64,000 bases of DNA from an uncultured Novosphingobium sp. (GTDB taxonomy: Bacteria; Pseudomonadota; Alphaproteobacteria; Sphingomonadales; Sphingomonadaceae): assembly GCA_946886075.1 (NCBI GenBank), contig CAMPHR010000006.1:51561-115560 (forward strand). Reading direction: 5' to 3'. A program made the translations under genes and the position numbers. Shown one piece after another: positions 17,002 to 30,620 of the stretch. The notes below the pieces were generated by a model that was not told the origin of the DNA, did no database searches, and worked only from the letters and a program-made list of their open reading frames with translations. Position 1 is the stretch's first letter, and the number at the start of each line of letters is the position of its first letter.

Positions 17002-17301
17002 GACATCCTTTCCATAGGTTCAGGGATCGGTCCCCGCGAATGGTGCCGCCGCTAGACGCGCGGGGCGGAGGCCGCAATCCGGTTCAGCGTCTCACAGGAA
17101 TTTTCGAACGAAACCGTGCTTTATATGCAACAGATAGCATGGCGGTTCTTCAGTTTAGCTTTTGATTCTGGCATATTAGCGCTGCTCATAGGCCCCTTTG
17201 CAAATTGCCCGGCCTCGCCGCGATGACGTGGCAGCGCGAAATGCGTGATGGCGTTAAGTTTGATTTTTTTCCTTTGTGATCGGGCAGAAGGAGAGGCGGT
17301 A
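17002..17301. promoter_or_regulatory. Divergent intergenic region upstream of the TonB receptor and the carrier remnant
   Basis: About 300 bases without a supportable gene. They hold the receptor's leader and Shine-Dalgarno at the left end and a T-rich patch (GATTTTTTTCC near 17261) at the right. No clear operator, RNA gene or repeat was recognised. Promoters for both directions are expected here but no confident -35/-10 pair can be named. Confidence 0.35.
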
Positions 17302-17948
17302 ATGATCGCCTATGATCCGCGTCAGGCGGGCAAAGGCGCCGACGATATGCTGGTGGCAGGAGGCGGGCAGGTTTGGCGCCTCACACCATGGCGCGCGGGC
17401 GGCGCGACGGGCGGGGATGCGTCGGACGGGGCAGTGCTTTCCCCCATGCCTGTCCGCATCATCGCTGTTGCAGTCGCGGCTGGGGAGGCCGTAGTGAAAG
17501 GGCGGAAGCTGCTGACGCTGGAAGCCATGAAGATGGAACACAGCCTTGTCGCGCCGTTCGACGGCACGATCCGCGCAGCTCAATGCCAGCGAATGCGGGC
17601 AGCAACCCGCAGCCGCTGCACATCGATGTGGAGGCGGCAAAGGCGAGTGAGTTCGGCCAGATCCTCGTCAACGGCACCTTCACCTTCGCCTTGATGATTG
17701 GCTTGTCGGTCGGCGACACGACGCTCGGCACGCTGATCGCCAATCTTGGCTATGACAAGCTGCTGATGCCAAAGCCCGTGTTCATCGGCGATACGCTGCG
17801 CGCGGAAACCGAGGTCATGGAATTGAAAGCCAGTAAGTCGCGCCCCGGTGCCGGGATAGTCACTTTCTCGCATCGCCTGATCAACCAGCGTGACGAGATC
17901 GTGTGCCAGTGCCTGCGCATGACTTTGATCAAAGGAAGCAACGTATAA
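17302..17948 (+). pseudogene. Fused remnants: biotin-carrier end of an acyl-CoA carboxylase joined to a MaoC hydratase fragment
   Basis: From the ATG at 17302 (AGAAGGAGAGG upstream) the frame gives the C-terminal part of an acyl-CoA carboxylase alpha subunit: [19 protein letters not shown] and the biotinylation site [20 protein letters not shown]. The homology then stops near 17580. In another frame a MaoC protein continues: [39 protein letters not shown] and [14 protein letters not shown], ending at 17948. The N-terminal part of MaoC and the end of the biotin domain are missing. A deletion across a carboxylase-MaoC boundary, as found in branched acyl-CoA clusters, explains both. A 121-residue MaoC piece could start at ATG 17583 but lacks the usual GD before NP. 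Function is very unlikely. Confidence 0.8.
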
Positions 17949-18050: not shown

Positions 18051-19685
18051 ATGGCAAATGCAGATTTTATCGTGGTGGGGACGGGCGCAGGTGGCCTTGC
18101 GGGTGCGATCTCTGCCAAGCTGAACGGCCTCAACCCGTTGATCATTGAAAAGTCGGCCCTTTGGGGTGGCACGAGCGCATTGTCCGGCGGCGGCGTGTGG
18201 ATCCCCAACAACCACCTGATGCAGCGGGACGGGATCGACGACAGTTTCGACGCCGCGCTTGCCTATATGGAGGCGACCATCGGCGATGTCGGCCCGTCCA
18301 GCAGCCGCGAACGCAAGACCGCCTATCTGAATGCCGGGCCCGACATGGTCCGTGGGCTTGAAGCACAAGGCCTCGGCTGGTGCCGTGCGCCGCGATACCC
18401 CGACTATCATCAGGATAAGCCCGGCGCGCGTGTGGGTCGCACGTTGGAGGGTGTGAGCTTCGACGGCAAGAAATTGGCGGGCTGGCTCAAGACCATGCGC
18501 ACGTCGGGCCTGCCATCCATGGTGATGAGCACTGACGATGCGCCCCAGATTCCGACCATGTTCCGGTCACTCAAATCCTTTTCTGCCGCGATGCGCATGA
18601 TGGGCCGCACACTGGCCTGGCGGGTACGCGGGCGCGAGCCGCTGTCGATGGGTGGCACGCTGGTCGCGCAGTTGATGGCGATCGTCCACAGGCTGGAGAT
18701 TCCCGTTCTCCTCGATACGCCGCTCAAATCGTTGATCCAGGATGGCGATCGCGTGGTCGGCGTCGTGACGGGCGAGGGACCAACCGAACAACGCATCATG
18801 GCCTCGCACGGCGTGTTGCTCGCCACTGGCGGGTTTGCGAAGAACAGCAGCTACCGCAAGCAATTTCAGGAAGTCGATGGGCGGTGGAGCCCGGCCAGCC
18901 CGGACGACACGGGCGACGGCCAGCGCATCGGGGCAGAAGCTGGCGCCGAACTTGCGCTGATGGACGCTGCCACCTGGTATCCGGTGTCGATACTGCCCGA
19001 TGGCACCATCAACGTCGGCATCTGGGAACGCACCTTGCCGGGATCGATTATCGTCGACAGTTCGGGCCAGCGCTACACGAACGAAGCGGCATCCTATGTG
19101 AATGCCGGACGTGCCATGCTGGACCGCGACAAGACCGTAAGCGCGGTGCCGAGCTGGCTGATCTTCGACAACCGCTACCGCAGCCGCTATTTCTTCGGAT
19201 CGACCCCGCCGGGAGTGAATGGTGAATTCCTCAAGAGCGGCTTCTTCATAAAGGCGGCAACGCTCGATGAACTGGCGGAGAAGTGCGGGATCGACGCGGA
19301 AGGACTGAAGCGGACGGTGCAACGGGTGAACGCCATGGCGCAAAATGGCGTCGATGAAGATTTTGGCCGTGGCGACAATGTCTATGATCAATATTATGGC
19401 GATCCGAAGAACCAGCCTAACCCATCCTTCGGCCCCATCGACAAAGCTCCATTTTACGCCACTCGCTTCTATCCGGGTGATCTGAGCACCAAAGGCGGGC
19501 TCATGGCGGACGAACATGCCCGCGTCATTCGCCCTGACGGCAGCGTGATCGGAGGGCTATATGCCGCTGGCAACTGCGCCGCGCCGGTCATGGGTAGGAC
19601 CTATCCGGGCGCGGGCGCGACGCTCGGCCCGTCCATGGTGTTCGCCTGGATCGCCGGGAAGCATGCTGCGGCGCACGGCGAATAA
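18051..19685 (+). CDS. FAD-binding dehydrogenase, 3-ketosteroid-delta1-dehydrogenase (KstD) type
   Basis: A 544-residue flavoprotein beginning with the dinucleotide motif VVGTGAGGLAGAISAKLNG and EKSALWGGTSALSGGGVWIP. The C-terminal block GGLYAAGNCAAPVMGRTYPG, then AGATLGPSMVFAWIAG, is that of KstD enzymes. Y518 and G522 have the tyrosine-x3-glycine spacing of the Rhodococcus active site (Y487/G491), and GQRYTNEAASY may supply another tyrosine. It would introduce a C1-C2 double bond in a 3-oxo steroid or a related cyclic ketone. It lies 102 bp after the carboxylase/MaoC scar, so it may be the survivor of a once larger cluster. Related fumarate-reductase-like flavoproteins are the alternative. 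Confidence 0.82.
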   Translation: MANADFIVVGTGAGGLAGAISAKLNGLNPLIIEKSALWGGTSALSGGGVWIPNNHLMQRDGIDDSFDAALAYMEATIGDVGPSSSRERKTAYLNAGPDMVRGLEAQGLGWCRAPRYPDYHQDKPGARVGRTLEGVSFDGKKLAGWLKTMRTSGLPSMVMSTDDAPQIPTMFRSLKSFSAAMRMMGRTLAWRVRGREPLSMGGTLVAQLMAIVHRLEIPVLLDTPLKSLIQDGDRVVGVVTGEGPTEQRIMASHGVLLATGGFAKNSSYRKQFQEVDGRWSPASPDDTGDGQRIGAEAGAELALMDAATWYPVSILPDGTINVGIWERTLPGSIIVDSSGQRYTNEAASYVNAGRAMLDRDKTVSAVPSWLIFDNRYRSRYFFGSTPPGVNGEFLKSGFFIKAATLDELAEKCGIDAEGLKRTVQRVNAMAQNGVDEDFGRGDNVYDQYYGDPKNQPNPSFGPIDKAPFYATRFYPGDLSTKGGLMADEHARVIRPDGSVIGGLYAAGNCAAPVMGRTYPGAGATLGPSMVFAWIAGKHAAAHGE

Positions 19686-19776: not shown

Positions 19777-20775
19777 ATGGCATCCGATCCGACGTGGTGG
19801 AATCAGGCAGGCTCTCATGTTGTGGCGGCGAGCGACTGGTGCGCGCGCCGGACGCCTGTTCGCATCGCCCTGCATCTGGCGGTCGGCGTCGGATTTCTCT
19901 GGCTCTTCCTGAGACAGGTCGATCTCGGCCCTGCTTTCGCGATCGTTGGCCGGGCTTCCGTCCTTCCGCTGCTGATTGCGCTTGTTGCCTATGCAGCCGA
20001 CTTCCTGCTGCGGGCTGCACGCTTCTGGCTGTTGTTGATGCGCGCATCGGGCCAAAGCTTGGCCTGGGCCCCTGTGCCTGGCCCTTTCATCGCCAGCTTC
20101 GGCATCAGTGACCTGTTGCCACTGCGCGCAGGGGACGTGTTCCGCCTTCTCTGGTTTCAGCGAAACATGAAGCTGCGTTCCGGCGGCGTGCTCGGCGCGA
20201 TGATGATCGAGCGATTTTTCGACCTGTTCTCACTTCTGCTGCTCGGTCTCGCGATCTTCACCTGGCACCTTGCCGGAGACTGGCGCTTCTGCCTGATCCT
20301 GCTGATACTAGTCTCCGGCATGGCAGGGTTGCTGGTGCCGATTGGCAGCCGAATGGCAGAGAAGGCGGGCACGCTTCGCTCCAAATGGCTGGCATGGCTG
20401 GCGTCCGCCGTTGGTTCTTTCCAGATGCTGCGATCGGTCCCGCTGCTTGCGGGCCTGACGGCCATGTCGCTTCTCTGCTGGCTGCTGGAGGCGGTGGTCA
20501 TGCTCGGCGCCTGGATCAGTCTTGGCGGTGCTGCGGAGCGCTGGGCAGAGCCCATGGCGGCCTTTGTGGGTAGCACGCTCGGCACCCTGTTTCCCGGATT
20601 GCCCGGCCATTTCGGCACGTTCGAGCTGTTCGGGCTTGAGATATTCTCCCGCAGCGGAGTGGAGCCGGGTTTCGCCGCCGCTGTCCTGCTGCTCGCGCAT
20701 CTTCTGCTGTGGGCGCCGACCGCTCTGTTCGCAATGATCTGGCTGCCGCTCAGCGGATCAGGAAAGACGGCGTAG
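19777..20775 (+). CDS. Flippase-like membrane protein (lysylphosphatidylglycerol synthase TM / UPF0104 family)
   Basis: A 332-residue integral membrane protein with about eight hydrophobic helices. LRAARFWLLLMRASGQ, FGISDLLPLRAGDVFRLLWFQ and MMIERFFDLFSLLLLG match the conserved first half of the LPG-synthase TM / AglD-like family, which includes HpnL and the flippase half of MprF. LGTLFPGLPGHFGTFELFGL is the conserved late glycine/proline loop. Such proteins move lipids or lipid-linked sugars across the inner membrane. Its end overlaps the convergent epimerase gene by 18 bp, tying it physically to the glycan operon. A flipping role in that pathway is inference. The start at 19777 has no strong Shine-Dalgarno. 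Confidence 0.82.
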   Translation: MASDPTWWNQAGSHVVAASDWCARRTPVRIALHLAVGVGFLWLFLRQVDLGPAFAIVGRASVLPLLIALVAYAADFLLRAARFWLLLMRASGQSLAWAPVPGPFIASFGISDLLPLRAGDVFRLLWFQRNMKLRSGGVLGAMMIERFFDLFSLLLLGLAIFTWHLAGDWRFCLILLILVSGMAGLLVPIGSRMAEKAGTLRSKWLAWLASAVGSFQMLRSVPLLAGLTAMSLLCWLLEAVVMLGAWISLGGAAERWAEPMAAFVGSTLGTLFPGLPGHFGTFELFGLEIFSRSGVEPGFAAAVLLLAHLLLWAPTALFAMIWLPLSGSGKTA

Positions 20776-21780
20776 CAAGCCGATCATATGTTGCTGGACG
20801 GGTGAACGGTGGGCAGATGCACCCTGAGCATGGGAGCGATGTGCGCAGAACCAGTCATAGCTTTCCGCCAGCATGTCCGCGTTCGAATAGCGCGCGCTCC
20901 AGCCGAGCTTTTCGAGCGGCGCGGTGTCGAACCAGCAGTCACGATGATAGGTGCGGTATTGCCAGGGGACCAGTGGCGAAAGCCTCATCTGGCGCAGCAG
21001 GCCAAGCGCTGCCATGGCAGGAGCGGTCGGCAGGCCCATGATGCGCGAGGTGCTGTCCGCATGTGCGATCAGCCCTTCCAGATCTTGGCGCAGGGTGCCG
21101 AAGCGATTGGTCCCCACATTATAGGTTCCCGGCTGTCGGCGCGCGAGCACCAACAGGATGAAATCGACCAGGTCGTCGGCATGGATGAACTGCATCCGGT
21201 TCGATCCGTCACCGATGATGAAGAGCCGCCGCCCCTCCGCGATCCACTGGAAAAGGATCTGGTAAATGCCCAGCCTTCCTTCCCCCAGAGTGGCGCGCGG
21301 CCGGATGATGGTAAGTGGCATGCCAGCCCGGCCGCAGATGTCCGACACAATGCGTTCTGCCGCCAGCTTGGACTGGCCATAGGGCTCGAACGGGCGCGGT
21401 CCGGTGGCTTGGGTGATGGGCCCTTTGGGGGGAAGGCCGAAGATGGCGGTGCTGCTCACATGCACGAACGCGCGCGCCCCGGCACGGACAGCCTCTTGCG
21501 CGACGATGCGCGATCCCTCGACATTGACCTCATGATAGCGCCGCCCCGCGTTGGACTGCGCCACCAGCGCGGCGTGATGGTGCAGCACATCGACACCGCG
21601 CATCGCCAGGGCGACCGTTTCGCGATCACATACGCTGCCCTGATGAAATTCGATGTCCGGCATTAGGGCAGGATCGCGGACCAGATCCAATATTCGCACC
21701 CTGTCCCCCGCCTGATGCAGGCGCTGGGCGAGGCGCGATCCGATAAATCCCGATCCCCCCGTCACAAGGTGCGTGGTCAA
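20758..21780 (-). CDS. NAD-dependent epimerase/dehydratase (extended SDR)
   Basis: This 340-residue protein begins HLVTGGSGFIGSRLAQRLHQ, an NAD(P)-binding motif, and has the extended-SDR catalytic set: VHVSSTAIFG with the serine and PYGQSKLAAE with tyrosine and lysine. Relatives epimerise, reduce or dehydrate nucleotide- or lipid-linked sugars, and 3-beta-hydroxysteroid-like members exist. It starts with TTG inside the end of the GMC gene (TTGA, 4-nt overlap) and is the last gene of the seven-gene operon. With the GMC oxidase it could perform an oxidation/reduction epimerisation like DprE1/DprE2 of mycobacteria; that pairing is my inference. Confidence 0.85.
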   Translation of the reverse strand: MTTHLVTGGSGFIGSRLAQRLHQAGDRVRILDLVRDPALMPDIEFHQGSVCDRETVALAMRGVDVLHHHAALVAQSNAGRRYHEVNVEGSRIVAQEAVRAGARAFVHVSSTAIFGLPPKGPITQATGPRPFEPYGQSKLAAERIVSDICGRAGMPLTIIRPRATLGEGRLGIYQILFQWIAEGRRLFIIGDGSNRMQFIHADDLVDFILLVLARRQPGTYNVGTNRFGTLRQDLEGLIAHADSTSRIMGLPTAPAMAALGLLRQMRLSPLVPWQYRTYHRDCWFDTAPLEKLGWSARYSNADMLAESYDWFCAHRSHAQGASAHRSPVQQHMIGLLRRLS

Positions 21781-23186
21781 GCGAAGCGCCTTTCAATAGC
21801 GCGCAGTGCGTTGCGGTGCGCGATGGCCATGACCGATCCTTGCGGATTGGCGATGGTCGGCCCGCACATCAGCGATGCGTCGGCGATGCGTAGCCCATCG
21901 CCGCCATGCACCCGCCCCCAGCTGTCGGTCGCGGCGATCCGTTGATTCTCCCCCATCGGGCAGGATGCGAAGACATGCACCGACGATAGCGAAGCGGACT
22001 TGCGCGGCAGCCGCTTGGGCAACGCATCGATCTCGGCGGCGGATCGAAGCAGGGGAAGCCCCGGCAGGCAGGGCTGAACTGCCTCCGCCCCGGCGGCGAA
22101 CAGCGCGCGCAGCAGGTGGCGGAGTCCGTCATACAGCGCTTCCAGTTCGCCTTCGTCATGGGCCACGGAAACGACCGGGTCCCGCGCGCCGGGCAGGCAC
22201 CTCACCTTGGCACGGCCGCTACCATTCTGGACATAATAGAGCCCCATCCGGTCCGAAGCATGCGCGATGTGGCAGCGCATGTCCGGATTGCCCGCCAGCG
22301 CCAACGCCAGGAGGGCGGGTGAACTGATCGAGCAGCCGATGCCGAAACGCGGTTCGAAACCCTTGATCTGGTGCACGGGATCGGGATCGCCAAGCCTGTT
22401 CACCGCATCGCTGAACAGCGCGACGGCCTTCAGCATGGGATGAAAGCGCAGGCTGTTGCCGACATTATGCCGGATGCCGGAGCGGCGCAACAGCGCAGGC
22501 GTCTGGATCGCGCCGCATGCCACGAACAGTCCGTCCGCCTCTATTTCCATCTCTCGTCCATCGCGGACCGCGCTGACCCGCCACCGCCGGTTGGCGCGGC
22601 TAATGCGCACCGCACGGGTCCCGGCCATCAACTCGCCGCCCGCACGCCGGAATTGCGGGATGAATGTCTCGCTCATCGATTGCTTGCGTCCGCTCACATA
22701 GTCGAACAGCCTGGGCGCCTGCACGCAATCCCAGCCTAGCGCCGCGCCCCCGTCGCCCAGCCGCTGGGACAAAGGCGGCGCGCGTCCGGGAAGACCGGCC
22801 ACTTTCGCCCTCGCCTCGCAAGCGTCGAAATGGGGGGCGAGCGCCTCGCCCGTCAGCGCATCGACCTGATATTCGCGCGCCCACTGCTCCAGAACATAGG
22901 CTGGCGTGCGATGGTAGAGCCCACGATTGACCTCGCTCCCACCCCCGACGCAGCAGCCTTCCATATAGCTGATCGACGGCTTGCCGAACGCAAGGCTGAG
23001 GCCCCTGTTGCGATATTTGCGCACGATCTCGTCGCCCGAAAAATGCCTGCACGCGTCCAAGGGCAGGTCCGGCCCTTCTTCCAGCAACAGCGTTTGAAAG
23101 CCCGCCTCGGCGCACAAGGCGGCGGTGACTGATCCGCCCGGCCCTGAACCGAGCACGGCCACATCGATGCGAAGCCGGTCAGCCAT
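21777..23186 (-). CDS. GMC-type FAD-dependent oxidoreductase
   Basis: The ATG at 23186 (MADRLRIDVAVLGSGPGGS) is chosen over an upstream in-frame extension and yields about 469 residues. The FAD-binding motif is G13-S-G-P-G-G18. YMEGCCVGGGSEVNRGLYHR matches the GMC signature, and VHVFASCPMG with GGDGLRIADASLMCGPTIAN and PQGSVMAIAHRNA form the conserved C-terminal active-site and flavin blocks. GMC enzymes oxidise alcohols of sugars, choline or lipids. The gene overlaps the small upstream protein by 8 nt and the epimerase by 4 nt. An alcohol of a lipid-linked sugar is the context-based substrate guess; cholesterol-oxidase-like activity is an alternative. Confidence 0.88.
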   Translation of the reverse strand: MADRLRIDVAVLGSGPGGSVTAALCAEAGFQTLLLEEGPDLPLDACRHFSGDEIVRKYRNRGLSLAFGKPSISYMEGCCVGGGSEVNRGLYHRTPAYVLEQWAREYQVDALTGEALAPHFDACEARAKVAGLPGRAPPLSQRLGDGGAALGWDCVQAPRLFDYVSGRKQSMSETFIPQFRRAGGELMAGTRAVRISRANRRWRVSAVRDGREMEIEADGLFVACGAIQTPALLRRSGIRHNVGNSLRFHPMLKAVALFSDAVNRLGDPDPVHQIKGFEPRFGIGCSISSPALLALALAGNPDMRCHIAHASDRMGLYYVQNGSGRAKVRCLPGARDPVVSVAHDEGELEALYDGLRHLLRALFAAGAEAVQPCLPGLPLLRSAAEIDALPKRLPRKSASLSSVHVFASCPMGENQRIAATDSWGRVHGGDGLRIADASLMCGPTIANPQGSVMAIAHRNALRAIERRFA

Positions 23187-23553
23187 AGCGCCTGTCCTCC
23201 CGTTGATCGGCCTTCTCCTCCTGCTGGTCGGGCCACAGGCCAAACAGCGTCAGGCTGACATAGAGCGTCATCAGCATGCGGCACGGCCCCAGGGCGGATC
23301 GCTCCCATGCTTCCACCTGCCGCAGCCGCTCTTTCTGCCGCAGCCGATGGAACGGACATCCGCGCCGGATGAGGGGCCACGCGTCGAAGGCAAGCGTCGC
23401 CAGATGCAGGGGAGGGCGAAGATAGCCGGGCATGCCAGCCAGGCTGTCCATGACGAACCGGCGAGCTATGTCCGGTTGCGCGGCATCGCCTCTTTCCCGC
23501 TGCGCCACTGCCTCTACCAGCGCGCCGATCGCGGCTCGGGCGTCAGGCATCAT
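23179..23553 (-). CDS. Small helical protein, probable detached N-terminal part/partner of the GMC oxidoreductase
   Basis: A 124-residue protein beginning MMPDARAAIGALVEAV. It has helical, Arg/Leu-rich sequence without a clear signal peptide: MPGYLRPPLHLATLAFDAWP, then RLRQKERLRQVEAWERSALG, and a hydrophobic MLMTLYVSLTLFGLWP near the end. A similar helical region precedes the flavin domain in long single-chain GMC oxidoreductases, where a PLLR...ERxxxLxxWERS pattern occurs. Here it is a separate gene overlapping HAD by 11 nt and GMC by 8 nt, so the two halves may assemble as subunits. The comparison is from memory and is moderate. The gene is real by its overlaps and coding quality. Confidence 0.65.
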   Translation of the reverse strand: MMPDARAAIGALVEAVAQRERGDAAQPDIARRFVMDSLAGMPGYLRPPLHLATLAFDAWPLIRRGCPFHRLRQKERLRQVEAWERSALGPCRMLMTLYVSLTLFGLWPDQQEEKADQREDRRYG

Positions 23554-24184
23554 GGCGAAACATGGGCTCGCGAAAATGGCGGAAGTCCCGTCCCCGGATC
23601 AGTGACCGTACCCCCACGCGCCGCGCCGCTTCACCATCCCGGTCGTCGCGGTCGCCGATCATCAGCGTTCGGGCGGGCACCGTCTTCGCCTGCTCGATCA
23701 GCCACAACAGCCCAGCCGGGTCGGGCTTCAACCGGCCCACATCCTCTGCCGTGACGCACAGATGCGCCGACAGGCCCAGGGCGTCGAGCTTCCCTTCTGG
23801 CCGATAGTCGGAAAAGACCGCCAGCACATGGCGCCGCGCCAGCCGGGTGAAGAGCGATCCCGCGCCCGGTGTTCGGCAGTCGCGCAACAATGGCAGCGGG
23901 CGACGCTCCATCCAGTCGGCAACGATCGCGCGCACCTGATCGGGTTGATGGCCGGGCAGGGCATATTGCGCATCGGCAAAGTCGCTGGCCATGACATCGC
24001 CCATCGCTTCCCGCTGTCGGCGATAGGCGGACAGCGTGCGCATCACCGACAGGCTGCGGCTGCGGATGGCTTCCCGCGCGAGCAGTCCCGCCATGCGCCG
24101 CCGCAACCGGGGCTGGTCGTACAGGGTGCCGTCCATGTCGAACACGATCAGGTCGAACCTGTCCCAGGAAACTGCAGCCGTCAC
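23543..24184 (-). CDS. HAD-superfamily phosphatase
   Basis: This 213-residue protein has all four HAD motifs: nucleophile DMDGTLYD (D16 with D18), AVFSDYRPEGK as motif II, RLKPDPAGLLWL with the lysine, and MIGDRDDRDGEAARRVGVRS with the metal-binding acids. The helical cap between motifs I and II is that of subfamily I. It starts with GTG overlapping the UbiA stop (GTGA). In mycobacteria, decaprenyl-phosphoryl-5-phosphoribose made by a UbiA enzyme must be dephosphorylated; a HAD enzyme here could do that step. That assignment is inferred from gene order; phosphatase chemistry itself is well supported. Confidence 0.87.
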   Translation of the reverse strand: MTAAVSWDRFDLIVFDMDGTLYDQPRLRRRMAGLLAREAIRSRSLSVMRTLSAYRRQREAMGDVMASDFADAQYALPGHQPDQVRAIVADWMERRPLPLLRDCRTPGAGSLFTRLARRHVLAVFSDYRPEGKLDALGLSAHLCVTAEDVGRLKPDPAGLLWLIEQAKTVPARTLMIGDRDDRDGEAARRVGVRSLIRGRDFRHFREPMFRHDA

Positions 24185-25170
24185 GGCCGGGCGTAGACGT
24201 GGCTGGGTGAGGACAGGTCGCTGATCGACGGGATGTCGATGAAGGACAGGCCCGCCAGCGCCGCGATGACGATGAAGGACGCCATCATCAGCCGCCGTGA
24301 ACGGAACAGCCGTTCAGGGCGGGACGCGACCGAATCCCGCCGCATCGCCAGCCAGAAATAGCTGGCGAACAGCACGGCGATGAACGGCAGCGCGAATATA
24401 TATTCCTGCCGGTACCGGATCAGGAATGCGGCCACGAAGAAGGCGGACAGCATGGCGTAGAGCATGCAGGATACCGCCAGATTTTCCGCATTGTAGCTGG
24501 CGAAGGACCGGCGGTAACGCGCCAGCAGGTCAGCCCCACCCGTCTCGCTGATATCGCGATATTCGGCCAGCCGCTTGGCCGCCATCAGGAACGCGCCGCC
24601 CATCCAATAGGCGAGCAGCAATGTCGTAGGCGCGCGGGTATAAGGCTCGATCATCGTCCAGCCCAGCATCAGGCGGATCGGGTTGTTGATGCTCTCGCTG
24701 ATCACATCGAGATAGACGCGATCCTTGGTGCGGACCGGCGGCACATTGTAGATAAGGCCCGACAGGACGAACGCCGTCGAAGTCCAGGCGAACAAGGCCC
24801 CCAGCTGCACCGCAAGCGACAGGCCAAGGATGACCAGCAACAGATATTCGGCATAGACGATCGGCGCCGACAAATTGCTCTGCACTGCGGTACGGGCTGA
24901 CTTCAGCGGATGGAAGGCGTCGAAGTCGCGGTCCAGCCATTCGTTGATCACATAATTGGCCGAAGCGATGGCGACGGCGCTGATGAGGCCGAGCAGCAGC
25001 GTTATCAGGCGGGGGTCCTGGGCCGGGTCTCGCAAGACATAGGCGAGGACGATCCCGGGGAGGATGAACACATGCTTCGTCATATGGTCCAGCCGGGCGA
25101 TGGCGACATAATCGCGCCACCGGCCATGTGGAGCCTGGATTGGACTGACCGTCATGGCTTCCTCACTCAT
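24181..25170 (-). CDS. UbiA-family membrane transferase, decaprenyl-phosphate phosphoribosyltransferase-like
   Basis: A 329-residue integral membrane protein with about eight or nine helices. The first acidic motif is N76-E-W-L-D80-R-D-F-D84, followed directly by AFHPLKSAR. That HP-x-K-x-x-R extension resembles phosphoribosyl-diphosphate-using members (mycobacterial Rv3806c type) rather than quinone prenyltransferases. The second motif region is YLDVISESINNPIRLMLGW. Such an enzyme would join polyprenyl phosphate to phosphoribosyl diphosphate at the inner face of the membrane. The HAD, GMC and SDR genes downstream could dephosphorylate and epimerise the product. A UbiA enzyme for another lipid is possible; aromatic prenylation seems unlikely here. 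Confidence 0.8.
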   Translation of the reverse strand: MSEEAMTVSPIQAPHGRWRDYVAIARLDHMTKHVFILPGIVLAYVLRDPAQDPRLITLLLGLISAVAIASANYVINEWLDRDFDAFHPLKSARTAVQSNLSAPIVYAEYLLLVILGLSLAVQLGALFAWTSTAFVLSGLIYNVPPVRTKDRVYLDVISESINNPIRLMLGWTMIEPYTRAPTTLLLAYWMGGAFLMAAKRLAEYRDISETGGADLLARYRRSFASYNAENLAVSCMLYAMLSAFFVAAFLIRYRQEYIFALPFIAVLFASYFWLAMRRDSVASRPERLFRSRRLMMASFIVIAALAGLSFIDIPSISDLSSPSHVYARP

Positions 25171-26713
25171 TGTTGGCCTCTCCCGGAGCGCGTCGATAGA
25201 TGGCGCCGTCCTTCAGCTGGGCGGTGCGGACGAGATGCAGGCGATCGGAAAGCTCCTGCTCCGATGCCATGTAAAAGCGCCAATCGACCCTGTTCAGAAG
25301 GACGACATAGGCATTGCCGCGCGCCAGCACGGCGTTGGCTGACGCCAACTGCTGGGCGTAGGGGAATTGCGCATCCTCCCGTCCAATTCGCAGGCTGATG
25401 TGCATCGGCGTGTCGCGCGCAGGACGGCGGAGCAGATAGGTGATGACATCGGGGCCGTTGGAGTAGATGACCGCGTCTTTCGGCAGCCGCGCGACTGCGG
25501 CGATCGTCGGCGAACGCACCCACTCCAGCGCGGCGTATCCGACGCCCTTGCGGTAATCCTGATAGGTGCGCACAGTCGTGCGGACCGCATGGCCAGCCAG
25601 CATCATGCAGCCGATGCCGATCAGGATGAGGCGCAGCGGGCGCGCCCTTTTGGACGTGCGGTCAAGCTGCGCGACCGCGATCGTCGCCGCCATGACGCTG
25701 GTGCAGTAGATCGGATAGGCATAGCGGCCATTAAGGTGCAGATTGGCTTCGATCGAAGTTGCCAGCACCATGAAGGCGAGATAGGTGAAGAAGAACAGGG
25801 CGAGCGGCACGGCGAGCAGCGACCGATCGGTGCCGACGGCCTGCCCAAGCGCGCGGCGGCCCTGAAGGACGATCGCGTATAGGCTCGCACCCAGCGCCAC
25901 AAGGAACAGGGCGCCGCGCACTGGTCCTGGAATATTGTCCGGCAGCAGCCAGGCGGTCATTGCATGGAAACTCAACCACCAATCGGCCGTGGTCATGTTG
26001 CCCAGCCATTCCAAGGGGCGGCCGGTCGACCGGCCATTCACCACTTCGCCCAGCGCGACCCATCCCAGGAATATCAACGCCGATGGCAAAAGGATGCGCA
26101 GTATGTTGCCGAACCTGCTGGACAAGGGCTGGCGCGGATCGATCAGCAGGAACAAGGCGATGGCCGCACCCAGCGCCGGGCCGGTGAAGCGGACCAATGA
26201 GGCAAGGCCTACGCCGACGCCCGCCATGATCAGCCAGCGGCCCTCGCCATCGCGCAGATAGCGGGCCAGGGCGATCAGCGTGGCGTAGATGGTGGTGAGG
26301 AACAGCGGCTCTGACATGGCAAGGCCGTGCAACGTCACCGACTGCGGCGCGATGACGATGATCGCCGTGCCCATGGCTGCCGCCGCGGGGCTGCCGCTCG
26401 CGATCCTCAGCAGATACCAGGCAAGCAGTGCGTTGAGCGGAGCTAGAACCAGCCCGATACCCCACGCGCCCTTGACGATGTCGATGCCTGTCATCGCCAC
26501 CAGCTGCAACAGGGCTGGATAAAGCGGGGCGTCCCACGGCTGGCTCGACAAGTTCATGTAGCGCGTACTGTCCGGCCAAACGCCGATGCCGTGATGCGTC
26601 ACCAGCAGGAACAGCAGCAGCGCAAGGACGGGCAAGCCGCCAGCGCTGATGCGGTCGAGCAGTATTTCGGACCGGGCACGGGCCAGCGCCGTTTCGGGTT
26701 GGAACGGGTACAT
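25163..26713 (-). CDS. GT-C fold membrane glycosyltransferase (ArnT/PMT-like)
   Basis: A protein of about 516 residues with roughly 11 membrane helices and a C-terminal soluble part. WPDSTRYMNLSSQPW in the first periplasmic loop carries the acidic residue that GT-C enzymes use with polyprenyl-phosphate sugars, and LVRFTGPALGAAIALFLLID is a typical later helix. ATG 26713 overlaps the aminotransferase stop as TGATG; GTG 26716 is also possible. It should transfer a sugar from a polyprenyl-phosphate donor on the periplasmic side to an envelope lipid or glycan. Its place beside the UbiA gene suggests the donor is made by this operon. The acceptor is unknown. Confidence 0.82.
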   Translation of the reverse strand: MYPFQPETALARARSEILLDRISAGGLPVLALLLFLLVTHHGIGVWPDSTRYMNLSSQPWDAPLYPALLQLVAMTGIDIVKGAWGIGLVLAPLNALLAWYLLRIASGSPAAAAMGTAIIVIAPQSVTLHGLAMSEPLFLTTIYATLIALARYLRDGEGRWLIMAGVGVGLASLVRFTGPALGAAIALFLLIDPRQPLSSRFGNILRILLPSALIFLGWVALGEVVNGRSTGRPLEWLGNMTTADWWLSFHAMTAWLLPDNIPGPVRGALFLVALGASLYAIVLQGRRALGQAVGTDRSLLAVPLALFFFTYLAFMVLATSIEANLHLNGRYAYPIYCTSVMAATIAVAQLDRTSKRARPLRLILIGIGCMMLAGHAVRTTVRTYQDYRKGVGYAALEWVRSPTIAAVARLPKDAVIYSNGPDVITYLLRRPARDTPMHISLRIGREDAQFPYAQQLASANAVLARGNAYVVLLNRVDWRFYMASEQELSDRLHLVRTAQLKDGAIYRRAPGEANNE

Positions 26714-28200
26714 CACGGCTTTGACCGGAAGCCAGCAAGGATGCGCTTCACATTCCCGGCGACGAAATGCAGCACGGAGTCCGGGATACCGCGATCAAAG
26801 ATATCGTCCAACCCATCCACCAGCCGGTCGATCTCCGCCTTGGTGACGATGAAGGGCGGCATGAAGTGGAGCATGTCGCGCGCGCCGGGCTGGAAATGAA
26901 CCAGGACGCCGTGCCGGTCGAACAACTGCCGCGCGAGCGCGCCGATCAGCACGGACTGATAAGTGAGGAATAGCGGATTGTTCGACACATCGACCAGCTT
27001 TGCTGCCATGTCTTCGCGGAAATTAAGGCGGATGGCGCGGAACAGCCCCCGGCCGCGCACTTCCAGCAGCGTGCGGGGATATTTGATGTGCAAGGCCTCA
27101 AGCCGCGCTTCGAGATAATCTCCCATCTCCCGCGCATTGTCGATCAGCCCATCTTCGTAGAGCGTGTTGAGTGTTTCGATCGCCACGGCGCAGCTTTCAC
27201 CAATGCCGCTGAATGTCGAGCTATGCAGGTTGCAGTCATTGCGATTGCCGTATGCCTGCTCGAACAGCGCGCGCGAAGTCACCATAGCGCCGATCGCCCG
27301 TTTACCGCCGCCCAATGTCTTTGCCAGCGTGACTATATCGGGCACCACATCTTCATGCATGAATGCGCAGAAGCGGCCCGTGCGCCCGCAACCCACCTTC
27401 ACCTCGTCAAAGATCGACAGGATGTCATTGGCGCGGCAAAGCTCGGCAAATTGCGTGAGATAGCCCGAAGGAGGCACCTCGCAGGCCGTGCCGCGGATTG
27501 GTTCGATGATGGCCGCGATGATGCTGTTGCCCTTTGCGCCGCTTTCCTCGGCGATGGCGCGATGCATCGCATCGATATCGCCATAGGGGACGTAAACCAC
27601 ATTTTCCTTCGGTACGCCCAGCAGGAAGCCGGTGTGCACGTTCGTCGCCGTTGTCAGCGCGAGCGCGCCATGCGTCTTCCCATGGAAAGCGCCGCGCATG
27701 CAGAGGAATTTGTGCTTCCCCTTGGGCGTCTGGATGCGCTCGGCCAGCTTCATCGCCGCTTCGTTGGCTTCGGCGCCCGATGTGGAGAAGAAGCTGGTGT
27801 CCAGCGGATCGGGCAGGATCTGGGCCAGATTATAGGCCAGCGCCGCCTGCAACTTGTGCGGGGCAAGCTTGATGATGTCCAGCACCTGCCGGGCATGACA
27901 CAGCTGCTCGGCGGCTACGATGCGGGGGTGGTTATGGCCTAGCCCAGCCGCTCCCATGCCGGTGGAAAAATCAAGCACCTCCCGCCCATCGGCCAGGTGC
28001 AGCACGGTGCCCCGCGCTGACCGCACGTCGAGGTCGTCCAGACCCAATATGCCGTATAGTCCCAGCAAATGCCGGTTGAGGTGCCTGGCATAAAGGCGAT
28101 TGGCTTCGCTTACGTCCAGAGACAGCGATTGTTCGAGTGTCAGGATCGCCGGCCGGTCAAACGGCGTGGGCAGAATATCCTGTTTGAACTGGGTTGCCAT
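26713..28200 (-). CDS. Class III PLP-dependent aminotransferase
   Basis: The ATG at 28200 (MATQFKQDILPTPF) gives about 495 residues; a TTG at 28239 could extend it. The PLP-binding parts are STSGAEANEAAMKLAE, MRGAFHGKTHGALALTT, IFDEVKVGCGRTGRF with the aspartate, and the Schiff-base lysine in AKTLGGGKRAIGAMV. This class transfers amino groups to terminal aldehydes, as in ornithine or putrescine aminotransferases and in HpnO, which aminates a hopanoid-linked ribose. As first gene of the glycan operon it may put an amino group on the lipid-linked sugar or its acceptor. It overlaps the glycosyltransferase gene and starts 103 bp after the response regulator gene. Confidence 0.88.
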   Translation of the reverse strand: MATQFKQDILPTPFDRPAILTLEQSLSLDVSEANRLYARHLNRHLLGLYGILGLDDLDVRSARGTVLHLADGREVLDFSTGMGAAGLGHNHPRIVAAEQLCHARQVLDIIKLAPHKLQAALAYNLAQILPDPLDTSFFSTSGAEANEAAMKLAERIQTPKGKHKFLCMRGAFHGKTHGALALTTATNVHTGFLLGVPKENVVYVPYGDIDAMHRAIAEESGAKGNSIIAAIIEPIRGTACEVPPSGYLTQFAELCRANDILSIFDEVKVGCGRTGRFCAFMHEDVVPDIVTLAKTLGGGKRAIGAMVTSRALFEQAYGNRNDCNLHSSTFSGIGESCAVAIETLNTLYEDGLIDNAREMGDYLEARLEALHIKYPRTLLEVRGRGLFRAIRLNFREDMAAKLVDVSNNPLFLTYQSVLIGALARQLFDRHGVLVHFQPGARDMLHFMPPFIVTKAEIDRLVDGLDDIFDRGIPDSVLHFVAGNVKRILAGFRSKP

Positions 28201-28302: not shown

Positions 28303-28959
28303 CTAGCCATTCGGAGCCTCGCCATTTGCGGCCGTTGCACCCTCGAAATAGATGGCGGCCAGCGCGGTGCGATTGGTGATGCGCAGCTTTTGGAAGATAT
28401 TGTGAAGATGGATCTTCACCGTGCCCTCGCCAGCCCCCAATTGTCGGGCGATGTCACGGTTGGACAGGCCCCGGCATGCCTGCGCGGCGATCTCCAGCTC
28501 CCGCGGGGTGAGCGCCGCCAGGCCGGGCGAGGGGCCCTCGTCCTGCCAGACGCGGGTTGCCTTTCTCGCCATTTCCTCTGGCAGCCACTGCCGTCCGCCC
28601 GCGACGCTGCGCAGGCAGTCGATCAACGTATTGGGTGCGGCTTCCTTCAGCACGATGCCCCAAATGCCATTTTCGATCGCTTCGGACAGCTGCGGGGGGG
28701 TAATCAGCGCAGTCAGGAAGACTGCCCGGATGGGCAGGTCCGCCATCCTTATTCGCCGCAGCAGAGCCAGTCCGCTGATGTCGGGCATGTTGATGTCCAG
28801 CACCACGATGTCGGGTTTCAACCGGTCTATGGCCTGGAAGGCGGCGGCGCCGTCGGTCATGCTGCCAACAACCCGAAAGTCCGGCTCCATCGCGACCAGC
28901 TCGGCCAATCCATGCAGCACAACCGGATGATCATCGACCAGGAAAACCGACTGCTTCAT
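28303..28959 (-). CDS. NarL/FixJ-type response regulator
   Basis: The ATG at 28959 gives 218 residues. The receiver domain has the acidic pair in FLVDDHPVVLHG, the phosphorylated aspartate D55 in VVLDINMPDISG, and a conserved lysine in IVLKEAAPN. The LuxR-type helix-turn-helix is LTPRELEIAAQACRGLSNRD, followed by GTVKIHLHNIFQKL. The start overlaps the kinase stop as ATGA, so both are translated together. It probably activates or represses transcription on a signal sensed by the kinase. The aminotransferase-led operon begins 103 bp downstream on the same strand and is the nearest candidate target or even part of the same transcript. Confidence 0.93.
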   Translation of the reverse strand: MKQSVFLVDDHPVVLHGLAELVAMEPDFRVVGSMTDGAAAFQAIDRLKPDIVVLDINMPDISGLALLRRIRMADLPIRAVFLTALITPPQLSEAIENGIWGIVLKEAAPNTLIDCLRSVAGGRQWLPEEMARKATRVWQDEGPSPGLAALTPRELEIAAQACRGLSNRDIARQLGAGEGTVKIHLHNIFQKLRITNRTALAAIYFEGATAANGEAPNG

Positions 28960-30620
28960 TGCAAAGGCACCTCGATCCGCATCGCCAATCCTGGTGCGTA
29001 GCGCGTTATCGCCATGCGGCCGCCCAAGTCCCGGATGCGCGCGCGCAAGGATCGGGGCCAAGCTGACCTGCTGTTGGGCGTTCGCACCATACCGCAGCCA
29101 TTGTCGGCGATGGTGAGGCGCAGGGCTTGGTCCGCCCTGTTCAACTCGACGGTTACCCGCGTTGCCCCGCCATGACGCACCGCATTGGCTGTCGCTTCGC
29201 TCAGCAACTGCCTGAGTTCACGGTGTAGGTCGCCCGACGCCTCCATGTCTGGCGGATTGACCGACAGGGCGATGTCGCATCCCCATTGATCGGACAGTTC
29301 ATCGGCGCTCTGGGCCAGTGATTGGGACAAGAACCGCAAGGGCGGCGATTCCATGTCGCGGCTACTTTCGACGAAAAGGCGGATGCGCCGCTGTTGTTCG
29401 GCCATGACGACAGCTACACCGTCAAGCGCGCCGCGCGCACTTTCGGGAAGGCTCATGCCCGCCGCCTTTAGCTTCAGCGAGGCAGCGGTCAACTCTTGCA
29501 GGACGCTGTCATGCAGGTCCCGCGCCAGCCGGATGCGTTCCTGCGCGCGCGCATTGTCGGCGATGGCATGGATCATTTCCCATCGTTCAAGTTCGTGGCC
29601 GATGCGAAGCGCAGTGATCTGAGTCAGATGCTGCGTTTCTTCGTGATGATTTTCAGCCCCGATCACGAACAGCCTGTCCGCGCCGTCGGAACCTGCGACC
29701 GGGGCTGAACGCAATCCGGCAGGATCGTCGAACAACTTGCCCCATCCGGTGACCGCGCCGATCGCGTCCAGTTCGGCGGTGTCGCTCGTGCGGAAAAGCT
29801 CCCTCCATTCCCGCCGCGGACTTCTGGCGCGCCAGAATGATGGGTCATCGATTTCCGCGATCCGCAACCCGCCCGGTCCCCACAATGCTATCGTCCCGCC
29901 GGACCCTTTCTGATCCTGCCAGAGCAGCAGCACCTGCCTGACGCCAAGGAGCTCGGCTGCATGCCGCAACATGTCGCTCAGCAAGATCCGCCGGTCCGTC
30001 GCGGCAGGCGCAGGATACCAACTTGCCAGCTGCGCGAAGCGATGGCTGCTCCGCGCCCGGCACGCGCCGAAATAGCCCAGCATCGCAGCCGCCACCAGGA
30101 AATAGGCCGACCGCATGATCAACAGGTTGAGTTCGGATTCCCCATCCTGCAAATCCCGCCAACCCAGCGCGATCAGCAGCAACTGCATGACGACCGCGCC
30201 CAGCACCGCACCCAGCATGTCCCAACGCAGCGTTGTCGCCAGCAGGATGAACGGCAGGAACGGGAAGAACGGGCTGCTGAGTTCGTCGGTCAGATAGACA
30301 AGAGCCCCTAGCGCCAGCAGGTCTATGCCATGGATGATGAGATGCGCCTTGCTTTCCAACGGCCAGCGCGGCGGCGTAAGGGCCAGCCAGAGCGAGAAGG
30401 CGATATAGCTGCCGAGCAGCAAATGCGCTTCGGCCAGGAAACCGGCCGGACGCGTCGGGTCGAGGTAGATGGCCAATGCTGCGAACAGCACCGTCACCAG
30501 CCTGCCTGCCGATATCAGCCATTCAGGATCGGCACCCGCGCGCAGCCCGTCCAGCAGGAAGCATCGCCTGATTGCCGCTAAAATGCGCGGCGCGGGTCCA
30601 TCCATCTTGCGCGTGCGCAT
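28956..30620 (-). CDS. Sensor histidine kinase of the NarL type (HisKA_3)
   Basis: This 554-residue kinase has five or six N-terminal membrane helices (for example LVTVLFAALAIYLD and FFPFLPFILLATTL), a GAF-like cytoplasmic region, and a HisKA_3 dimerisation helix with the phosphorylated histidine in RIRLARDLHDSVLQELTAAS (about residue 367). The ATP-binding domain shows EATANAVRHGGATR (N box) and TIADNGCGM (G1). No large periplasmic sensor loop is evident, so it may sense a membrane or envelope state. It is co-translated with the response regulator. Its place upstream of a membrane-glycolipid operon fits envelope control, which is inference. Confidence 0.92.
   Translation of the reverse strand: MRTRKMDGPAPRILAAIRRCFLLDGLRAGADPEWLISAGRLVTVLFAALAIYLDPTRPAGFLAEAHLLLGSYIAFSLWLALTPPRWPLESKAHLIIHGIDLLALGALVYLTDELSSPFFPFLPFILLATTLRWDMLGAVLGAVVMQLLLIALGWRDLQDGESELNLLIMRSAYFLVAAAMLGYFGACRARSSHRFAQLASWYPAPAATDRRILLSDMLRHAAELLGVRQVLLLWQDQKGSGGTIALWGPGGLRIAEIDDPSFWRARSPRREWRELFRTSDTAELDAIGAVTGWGKLFDDPAGLRSAPVAGSDGADRLFVIGAENHHEETQHLTQITALRIGHELERWEMIHAIADNARAQERIRLARDLHDSVLQELTAASLKLKAAGMSLPESARGALDGVAVVMAEQQRRIRLFVESSRDMESPPLRFLSQSLAQSADELSDQWGCDIALSVNPPDMEASGDLHRELRQLLSEATANAVRHGGATRVTVELNRADQALRLTIADNGCGMVRTPNSRSAWPRSLRARIRDLGGRMAITRYAPGLAMRIEVPLQ

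What the first reader, a model, noticed from the sequence alone, without database searches (positions are those of the whole stretch)
19777..28200. Tightly coupled operon for a polyprenyl-linked sugar of the cell envelope, possibly a new pathway
Seven leftward genes, with every neighbouring pair overlapping by 1-11 nt, encode an aminotransferase, a GT-C glycosyltransferase, a UbiA enzyme with an HP-x-K-x-x-R extension, a HAD phosphatase, a small helical protein, a GMC flavoprotein and an extended SDR. They converge (18-bp overlap) on a flippase-like protein. By analogy with mycobacterial decaprenyl-phosphoryl-arabinose synthesis, the order suggests phosphoribosyl transfer to polyprenyl phosphate, dephosphorylation, a C2 oxidation/reduction by GMC plus SDR in place of DprE1/DprE2, flipping, and periplasmic transfer. 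The class III aminotransferase could add an amino group, as HpnO does to hopanoid ribose. The overlaps and domains are seen; the pathway is inference.
Basis: partly seen in the sequence, partly recalled or inferred. Interest (0 to 1): 0.78.

Follow-up and report, generated by a model that had tools for sequence, protein, structure and literature searches.

The report
Operon for lipid-linked amino-pentose sugar
A tightly packed set of genes in a bacterium related to Sphingobium looks like a route for building an unusual nitrogen-containing five-carbon sugar on a membrane lipid and attaching it outside the cell, using a different oxidising enzyme from the one tuberculosis bacteria use.

Summary
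In detail: seven leftward genes overlap by 1-11 nt and meet a flippase-like gene with an 18-nt overlap; the relative Chol11 has the same layout. A histidine kinase/response regulator pair belongs to the neighbourhood.

The UbiA protein is of the decaprenyl-phosphate phosphoribosyltransferase type, not the quinone or heme type. With the HAD, GT-C and flippase-like genes it forms a 'three-component' lipid-linked pentofuranose system, a route described in 2024 (PMC11127046). The pathway type is not new; its oxidation and amination part is.

GMC plus a small helical protein stands in for DprE1. The aminotransferase stays with the operon while the SDR comes and goes (4 changes). The closest aminotransferase relatives found sit in a second Rhizobiales operon: HAD-UbiA, DprE1-like oxidase, small transporter, SDR, aminotransferase (6 of 6 fetched loci). 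A probable HpnO is the next branch.

Best reading: polyprenyl-P-ribofuranose is oxidised by GMC plus the small protein, transaminated, flipped, and added by a GT-C to an unknown envelope acceptor: an aminopentofuranose. Product, carbon position and acceptor are inferred.

The parts
26713..28200 (-). Class III PLP aminotransferase (AT1), 495 aa; predicted to aminate the oxidised lipid-linked pentose
   Evidence: Aminotran_3 2.7e-77; invariant K294 in TLAKTLGGGK (that it is the PLP lysine is recalled); clade with AT2 of a DprE1-like operon, 100/99, probable HpnO as sister 99/97
25163..26713 (-). GT-C membrane glycosyltransferase, 516 aa; predicted to transfer the sugar to an envelope acceptor
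24181..25170 (-). UbiA-family polyprenyl-phosphate phosphoribosyltransferase, 329 aa, conserved N-E-W-L-D-R-x-x-D-A-x-H-P-x-K-x-x-R
   Evidence: best NCBIfam decaprenyl-P phosphoribosyltransferase 70.5 bits, cut-off 234; profile finds only Mtb decaprenyl-P phosphoribosyltransferase in PDB, E 3.8e-6; motif invariant in 24 aligned sequences
23543..24184 (-). HAD phosphatase, 213 aa; predicted 5-phosphate removal
   Evidence: Pfam Hydrolase 6.1e-14; FDMDGT motif in the translation
23179..23553 (-). Small six-helix protein (124 aa), conserved next to GMC; predicted GMC partner
   Evidence: no Pfam/NCBIfam hit at E 0.001; model pLDDT 91.6, no PDB fold match at E<=0.001; present in class I and II loci; fused to the HAD in L009
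21777..23186 (-). GMC flavoprotein oxidoreductase, 469 aa; predicted oxidation of the lipid-linked ribose
   Evidence: GMC_oxred_N 6.1e-26, GMC_oxred_C 1.8e-16; invariant H404 and N447 (that these are the catalytic pair is recalled); nearest solved: cholesterol oxidase, pyranose oxidase
20758..21780 (-). Extended SDR (Epimerase family), 340 aa; optional stereochemistry-setting reductase/epimerase
   Evidence: Epimerase 3.9e-40; TGGxGFIG and YGxSK invariant; presence needs 4 changes on a tree of 22 operons
19777..20775 (+). Flippase-like protein (LPG_synthase_TM), 332 aa
   Evidence: PF03706 5.9e-27, TIGR00374 above cut-off; present in 22 of 23 rows; ATG at 19777 agrees with the start of the L001 homologue
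28303..28959 (-). LuxR/NarL-type response regulator, overlapping the kinase by 4 nt
   Evidence: Response_reg 1e-23, GerE 7.7e-16; with the kinase in 17 of 23 rows
28956..30620 (-). Sensor histidine kinase (HisKA_3/HATPase_c), 554 aa
   Evidence: HisKA_3 1.8e-10; neighbourhood conserved

Best explanation
The operon makes a polyprenyl-phosphate-linked amino-deoxy-pentofuranose and adds it to something outside the cytoplasmic membrane. UbiA transfers 5-phosphoribose from PRPP to polyprenyl phosphate and the HAD enzyme removes the 5-phosphate, giving polyprenyl-P-ribofuranose. The GMC flavoprotein with its small partner oxidises one hydroxyl to a carbonyl (the job DprE1 does elsewhere), and the class III aminotransferase turns the carbonyl into an amine. 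The SDR, where present, sets the stereochemistry or makes a second, non-amino epimer. The LPG_synthase_TM-type protein flips the lipid-linked sugar and the GT-C, of the same general fold as ArnT and AftA, transfers it to an envelope acceptor, under control of the adjacent two-component system. Shown here: domains, motifs, conserved linkage, tree positions. Inferred: every reaction, the carbon that is aminated (C2/C3 by DprE1 analogy; C5 by analogy with flavin dehydrogenase/class III pairs that make CH2-NH2 on aminoglycosides), the regulation and the acceptor.
For: UbiA: best NCBIfam is decaprenyl-P phosphoribosyltransferase (70.5 bits; heme O synthase 26.8). A profile of 24 homologues finds only chains named decaprenyl-phosphate phosphoribosyltransferase in PDB: 8j8j at E 3.8e-6, and 8j8k, whose aligned motif residues are alanine, at E 0.42. 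Linkage: 23 of 80 UbiA-scan loci carry AT with GTC, UbiA and GMC (split in L023). Where the operon is split, the parts stay a set: L030's locus lacks HAD, flippase-like gene and regulator, and its genome has all of these beside a second aminotransferase (936 bits) about 224 kb away. Genome-wide, AT1 (over 900 bits) is in 8 of 8 searched genomes with the class I set or both sets and in 0 of 17 others, among them 7 genomes that have GMC/SDR without AT (the 8 were chosen from loci with AT). SDR presence needs 4 changes on a tree of 22 operons. The closest aminotransferase relatives found (clade 100/99) lie in a second operon, HAD-UbiA, DprE1-like oxidase, small transporter, SDR, AT2, in 6 of 6 fetched loci; for L112 NCBIfam gives DprE1 325.6 bits and ArnF 51 bits. 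GMC/small protein/SDR occur without AT in class II and on pNGR234a. The GT-C model shares its fold with ArnT and AftA. A flavin dehydrogenase plus class III aminotransferase (GenQ/GenB1) aminates a sugar aldehyde and a ketone in vitro (PMC4039129, passages read).
Against: No reaction, lipid or glycan has been measured. UbiA and DprE1-like hits are below the NCBIfam cut-offs. The HAD is missing from the locus in L011 (its genome was not searched for it). Class Ia operons, including the window, carry both SDR and aminotransferase, which a pure SDR-or-AT branch does not explain. Four of the 10 SDR-less genomes checked have a 31-32% SDR relative beside an AT2-type gene, which could act in trans. 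In random sampling the co-occurrence is thin: besides the two centre genomes, which were known positives, only G220 of 344 genomes has AT1, and its GMC match covers only the C-terminal half. The aminotransferase copy inside the L030 operon lacks stretches that the others have. HpnO and the aminoglycoside enzymes act on a terminal aldehyde or an exocyclic ketone, not on a ring ketone. The small protein matched the pNGR234a one only weakly (16.6-17.1 bits, 14-sequence search). The GT-C fold matches oligosaccharyltransferases and PMTs as well or better.
Confidence: 0.57

Rival explanations
1. A plain D-arabinofuranose (or xylofuranose) system: GMC plus SDR replace DprE1/DprE2, and the aminotransferase acts on the acceptor or on something else that happens to be co-regulated.
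For: GMC, small protein and SDR occur together without the aminotransferase in class II loci and on pNGR234a/pRCCGE531b. Kelly et al. report an SDR or DprE1/E2 as the diversifying enzymes; the word aminotransferase is not in their main text.
Against: The SDR is absent from 11 of 23 aminotransferase loci, with short GMC-flippase junctions in 9 of the 10 tabulated, and from 6 of 10 checked genomes altogether at E 1e-30. The aminotransferase family also travels with a DprE1-like oxidase.
Confidence: 0.25
2. The lipid is not polyprenyl phosphate but a terpenoid such as a hopanoid, and the operon makes an amino-polyol head group in the manner of HpnO.
For: A probable HpnO is the sister of the AT1+AT2 clade; the SDR's best NCBIfam model is HpnA (92.8 bits, cut-off 367.65); of three class I genomes searched, one (G364, L030) has a squalene-hopene cyclase.
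Against: The other two class I genomes, G001 (nearest relative) and G004 (which has both AT1 and AT2), have no squalene-hopene cyclase match (4 of 8 genomes searched have one). UbiA is of the phosphoribosyltransferase type and a GT-C is present.
Confidence: 0.05
3. UbiA is a quinone, heme or chlorophyll-type prenyltransferase and the cluster belongs to an aromatic or steroid pathway (a 3-ketosteroid dehydrogenase-like gene lies next door).
For: KstD-like gene at 18051-19685; the relative Chol11 degrades bile salts (PMC5754482, search listing only).
Against: Profile and NCBIfam results; within the stretch shown (8.5 kb either side of UbiA) the KstD label appears only in L001 of 80 loci.
Confidence: 0.03

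Closest known systems
Three-component pentofuranose systems (Kelly et al. 2024, PMC11127046; Citrobacter youngae O1/O2)
   Same: PRPP-dependent UbiA-type synthase, HAD-family phosphoribose phosphatase, flippase, GT-C, optional enzymes that change the pentose.
   Different: Flippase is LPG_synthase_TM-type, not MATE; UbiA and HAD are separate genes; GMC plus small protein and a class III aminotransferase are added (neither 'GMC' nor 'aminotransferase' occurs in its main text; its supplement was not seen).
Mycobacterial decaprenylphosphoryl-arabinose pathway (Rv3806c, Rv3807c, DprE1, DprE2)
   Same: First step and logic: phosphoribosyl transfer, dephosphorylation, oxidation on the lipid.
   Different: GMC instead of the FAD_binding_4-type DprE1; extended SDR; HAD instead of the Rv3807c-type phosphatase; aminotransferase added.
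noeCHOP / noeCNHOP of Azorhizobium and Rhizobium sp. IRBG74 (PMC2443382, PMC5080398; passages read)
   Same: Alphaproteobacterial lipid-linked pentose operon; noeC, noeH and noeO are related there to mycobacterial arabinose-precursor genes.
   Different: Involved in D-arabinosylation of Nod factors; no aminotransferase or GMC is named in the passages read.
Arn pathway (undecaprenyl-P-4-amino-4-deoxy-L-arabinose, ArnT)
   Same: Works like it: lipid-linked amino-pentose, flippase, GT-C (fold match to ArnT), two-component regulation (the Arn side of this is recalled).
   Different: Sugar built on the lipid from PRPP rather than from UDP-glucuronate (recalled); class III, not DegT/ArnB-type, aminotransferase.
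HpnO (hopanoid aminotransferase)
   Same: A probable HpnO is the next branch outside the AT1+AT2 clade; HpnO acts on ribosylhopane (PMC12583986, passages read).
   Different: Separate branch; no hopanoid cyclase match in the genome of the nearest relative.

Membership tests
Three-component pentofuranose system | UbiA-type polyprenyl-phosphate phosphoribosyl transferase | tested here: met
   NCBIfam best match (70.5 bits, below the cut-off of 234) and PDB profile match to decaprenyl-P phosphoribosyltransferase only; activity untested
Three-component pentofuranose system | HAD-family phosphoribose phosphatase | tested here: met
   HAD gene overlapping UbiA by 4 nt; not compared with the PRP domain itself, activity untested
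Three-component pentofuranose system | MATE-family flippase | tested here: not met
   LPG_synthase_TM (PF03706) is the only Pfam match
Three-component pentofuranose system | GT-C of family GT136 | tested here: inconclusive
   GT-C fold supported; GT136 itself not compared
Three-component pentofuranose system | lipid-linked pentofuranose product | not testable with these tools
   needs mass spectrometry/NMR
DprE1/DprE2 arabinose pathway | DprE1-type (FAD_binding_4) oxidase in the locus | tested here: not met
   oxidase is GMC; the G.G.S.GD motif was found in no gene called in the 80 loci or the window (the gene finder misses some genes), while all 6 AT2 loci show it
DprE1/DprE2 arabinose pathway | DprE2-type classical SDR | tested here: not met
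   SDR is of the extended Epimerase type; that DprE2 is a classical SDR is recalled
Arn pathway | ArnT-like GT-C fold | tested here: met
Arn pathway | ArnB-type (DegT) aminotransferase | tested here: not met
   Aminotran_3 is the only Pfam match; that ArnB is DegT-type is recalled
Hopanoid HpnO | falls in the HpnO clade and sits in a hopanoid producer | tested here: not met
   separate clade (one probable HpnO only, named from its place 7.4 kb from a cyclase gene); no cyclase match in G001

The most novel reading that the evidence does not exclude
A previously undescribed class of envelope decoration: aminopentofuranoses built on polyprenyl phosphate from PRPP. It was reached by two operon families that use unrelated oxidases (GMC plus small partner, or a DprE1-like enzyme) feeding one aminotransferase lineage, in effect an 'Arn-like' positively charged modification assembled from arabinan-type enzymes, in sphingomonads and rhizobia.
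Probability: 0.48. Interest if true: 0.78.

Novelty: new variant of a known kind. Interest (0 to 1): 0.6.

Why it matters
If true, bacteria have a second chemistry for putting a charged amino-pentose on their surface, parallel to the aminoarabinose (Arn) system known for tolerance of cationic peptides (recalled), and DprE1 has an unrelated natural stand-in. It would explain orphan aminotransferase and GMC genes in rhizobia and sphingomonads, link them to surface glycans that have not been looked for, and give concrete mutants and masses to test. It also puts HpnO next to a wider aminotransferase family that may act on lipid-bound ribose.

Tried and rejected
Hopanoid reading of the aminotransferase: I first took the second-tier aminotransferases (about 370 bits) for HpnO because they lie beside an HpnA-like SDR; fetching the loci showed a HAD-UbiA/DprE1-like operon instead. 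My own early guess, rejected. The gene I call probable HpnO (L117) is named only from its place near a cyclase gene; PMC12583986 (passages) says hpnO is typically not in the hpn cluster, and no verified HpnO sequence was compared.

Quinone/heme/chlorophyll UbiA: rejected by profile scores. No tree with such enzymes was built.

Small protein as the N-terminal domain of long-chain alcohol oxidases: a recalled resemblance only; the best PDB sequence match was E 0.37 to an unrelated protein and there was no fold match at E<=0.001, so not claimed. GT-C families not in the VIA list are not excluded.

Plasmid search: no match for the aminotransferase or the flippase-like protein at the limits set (1e-100 and 1e-20); GMC gave 4 records at 1e-60.

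ORF-length gene picking failed in high-GC loci and was replaced by a codon-score gene finder of my own; it misses some genes (the DprE1-like gene in L115, found by translation; small proteins in L064 and L067, seen as ORFs).

Rows dropped: the SDR tree leaves out L002 (contig cut before the aminotransferase), L023 (GMC split) and L040 (both sets). The aminotransferase tree uses 12 of 24 AT1, 6 fetched AT2 and 11 of 23 other hits.

Papers: 10 counted searches. Those on GMC oxidoreductase/UbiA/polyprenyl/aminotransferase/flippase (no paper with 4 of 5 terms), DprE1/aminotransferase/Rhizobium/UbiA (5) and polyprenyl/amino sugar/pentofuranose/aminotransferase/three-component (12, of which 10 listed) showed no title or abstract start that describes this operon; only open-licence papers are held.

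Changes after holding the report against the calls: two of the three AT1-positive genomes in the random samples are the centres of those samples, which weakens that point; the second aminotransferase in L030's genome, which I had put down as a stray copy, turned out on fetching to sit with the HAD, flippase-like and regulator genes missing from L030, which strengthens the linkage. I left the confidence at 0.57.


Full report
What is there. The finding is real. On the minus strand, in order, lie a class III aminotransferase (28200-26713), a GT-C protein (26713-25163), a UbiA protein (25170-24181), a HAD phosphatase (24184-23543), a 124-aa helical protein (23553-23179), a GMC flavoprotein (23186-21777) and an extended SDR (21780-20758). 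A plus-strand flippase-like gene (19777-20775) converges on them. Overlaps are 1, 8, 4, 11, 8, 4 and 18 nt, and Novosphingobium sp. Chol11 (L001, 84% DNA identity over 16.8 kb) has the same ones. Directly upstream on the same strand are a response regulator and a histidine kinase (28303-30620).

Conservation. A UbiA alignment found 452 relatives in genome contigs, of which the best 80 were kept. With a codon-score gene finder I labelled their neighbourhoods. The aminotransferase occurs in 23 of the 80 loci, in each with a GT-C and UbiA, and with the GMC (split in L023). tabulates 23 rows with both aminotransferase and GMC (22 loci plus the window): the small protein is in all 23 (21 at threshold, plus L009, where it is fused to the HAD, and L017, by the profile search), the flippase-like gene in 22, the kinase/regulator pair in 17. 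The HAD is missing from L011 and L030. Class II (L035, L036, L040, L043, L064, L065, L067) has GT-C, UbiA and HAD opposite SDR, GMC and small protein, with a GtrA-type protein in place of the flippase-like one (6 of 7; L043 is cut; GtrA by Pfam on two homologues). L040 has the class II set and, beside it, aminotransferase, a second GT-C, flippase-like gene and regulator. Its two GT-Cs fall in different parts of the GT-C tree, one with class II and one with class I. Many other loci have only GT-C, UbiA, HAD and GtrA.

A split operon. L030's locus has aminotransferase, GT-C, UbiA, small protein, GMC and SDR but no HAD, flippase-like gene or regulator. About 224 kb away on the same contig, the genome has histidine kinase, response regulator and flippase-like gene on one strand, facing a HAD gene and a second, better-matching aminotransferase (936 against 757 bits) on the other. 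The parts missing from one place are together in the other, which argues that they work as one set.

UbiA. NCBIfam's best model is decaprenyl-phosphate phosphoribosyltransferase (70.5 bits, cut-off 234); heme O and chlorophyll synthases score 27-31 bits. The profile finds in PDB only 8j8j (E 3.8e-6) and the related entry 8j8k, in which the aligned motif residues read as alanine and the match drops to E 0.42. Both chains are named decaprenyl-phosphate phosphoribosyltransferase.

Which step is essential. In 11 aminotransferase loci (L008, L009, L010, L012, L015, L017, L019, L021, L023, L024, L026) the SDR is missing. In the ten of these tabulated, GMC and the flippase-like gene nearly touch (gaps -25 to 175 nt; 630 in L015). 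Ten of these 11 genomes were searched: six have no SDR hit at E 1e-30, four have only a 31-32% hit, which sits beside an AT2-type gene (scored for G004 and G005; judged by eye for G003 and G006). On a joint tree of UbiA, GMC, aminotransferase and GT-C from 22 operons, SDR presence needs 4 changes, and well-supported branches force 4. So the SDR comes and goes while aminotransferase, GMC and the small protein remain.

The aminotransferase across genomes. AT1 (over 900 bits) is in 8 of 8 searched genomes with the class I set or both sets, and in 0 of 17 others: 7 with GMC/SDR sets (L035, L036, L043, L052, L064, L065, L067) and 10 with UbiA sets lacking GMC beside them (4 of these 17 have an AT2-level gene). 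In two random samples, 199 genomes of the family of G014 and 147 of the order of G001, AT1 occurs in 2 and 1. Two of these three are the centre genomes, known positives. The third, G220, has a GMC match over the C-terminal half only. GMC without AT1 occurs in G317, a class II genome, and G208. The small protein is in 1 of the 147, G001. So the operon is rare and patchy.

The aminotransferase family. In four genomes the profile ranks AT1 at 917-973 bits, a second set (AT2) about 365, a Bradyrhizobium gene 7.4 kb from a squalene-hopene cyclase 217 (probable HpnO), and the other 23 hits 159 or less. AT1 (12) and AT2 (6) form a clade (100/99), the probable HpnO joins next (99/97), and 11 other class III enzymes fall outside. 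Six AT2 loci were fetched. In 6 of 6 there is a UbiA protein of 461-505 aa (HAD-UbiA fusion confirmed by Pfam in L112), a gene with the DprE1-type G.G.S.GD motif (in L115 found only by translating the gap), a small transporter-like protein, an SDR of the same family (191-200 bits) and AT2. For L112 the best NCBIfam models are DprE1 (325.6 bits, cut-off 500), the HAD-UbiA family (635, cut-off 351) and ArnF (51, cut-off 99). G004 carries both AT1 and AT2 and has no squalene-hopene cyclase match.

A third arrangement. On symbiosis plasmid pNGR234a, about 6.6 kb from nodS, an SDR, an SMR transporter, a 125-aa protein and a GMC face a 658-aa protein of no Pfam family, a second SDR and a 489-aa UbiA protein with a HAD-like N-terminus; pRCCGE531b has the same order. 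The GMC and first SDR match at 395-401 and 325-339 bits, the small protein only weakly (16.6-17.1 bits in a 14-sequence search).

Mechanism. UbiA plus HAD make polyprenyl-P-ribofuranose; GMC plus the small protein oxidise it; the aminotransferase aminates it; the flippase-like protein and the GT-C finish the job. The GT-C model (pLDDT 87.5) matches ArnT and AftA, though oligosaccharyltransferases and PMTs match as well or better. A flavin dehydrogenase with a class III aminotransferase doing just this to a sugar aldehyde and an exocyclic ketone is known from gentamicin (GenQ/GenB1, PMC4039129, passages read; that GenQ is a GMC enzyme is recalled). Whether C2, C3 or C5 is aminated is open: DprE1 analogy favours C2, HpnO and GenQ/GenB1 favour a terminal position, which the HAD step would expose. 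The role of the SDR when both it and the aminotransferase are present is the weakest point; Kelly et al. showed that their SDR decides the identity of the pentose but not its addition (PMC11127046, section 11 read).

Comparison with what is known. 'GMC' and 'aminotransferase' do not occur in its main text. The supplementary figures were not seen, so an unremarked example there cannot be excluded. noeCHOP (PMC5080398, PMC2443382, passages read) is the closest alphaproteobacterial precedent.

Verdict. Observation confirmed, interpretation partly supported, best filed as a new variant of lipid-linked pentofuranose systems. The amino-sugar product is the bold and testable part.

Noticed in passing
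window 17245-17948: Remnant next to the KstD-like gene: only residues 490-588 of a 614-aa protein of L001 (17704-19548; biotin-dependent carboxylase-like by eye) match here (80% identity), and the following small gene is shortened (121 aa against 150), as if a deletion joined them.
   Followed up: partly
window 18051-19685: 3-ketosteroid delta-1-dehydrogenase-like gene beside the operon (637.8 bits to the NCBIfam model, below its cut-off of 789), shared with the bile-salt degrader Chol11 and not labelled in the stretches of the other 79 loci shown.
   Followed up: no
L091 8040-16105 (pNGR234a) and L092 8181-16123 (pRCCGE531b): Lipid-linked pentose-like set on rhizobial plasmids, 6.6 kb from nodS on pNGR234a: SDR, SMR transporter, small protein, GMC, 658-aa protein, SDR, UbiA with HAD-like N-terminus. 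A paper search for the recalled y4n gene names found nothing relevant.
   Followed up: partly
L110-L115: Second Rhizobiales operon: HAD-UbiA, DprE1-like oxidase, small transporter (ArnF-like in L112), SDR, class III aminotransferase; in L110 and L112 also a further protein (384 and 410 aa; weak GT87 match in L112) and a FkbM-type methyltransferase.
   Followed up: partly
L018, L020, L027, L029, L031, L032: Putative GT-C (c9), UbiA, HAD and GtrA sets without GMC or the operon's SDR beside them in Polaromonas and Ramlibacter: candidates for plain ribofuranosylation.
   Followed up: no
L009 11035-12135: The HAD and the small GMC partner are one fused gene (366 aa), which suggests that they work together.
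   Followed up: no
L147 4845-10474 and L030 6941-13839 (genome G364): The operon is split over two places about 224 kb apart, with an aminotransferase in each; the copy inside L030 is the weaker match and lacks stretches that the others have.
   Followed up: partly
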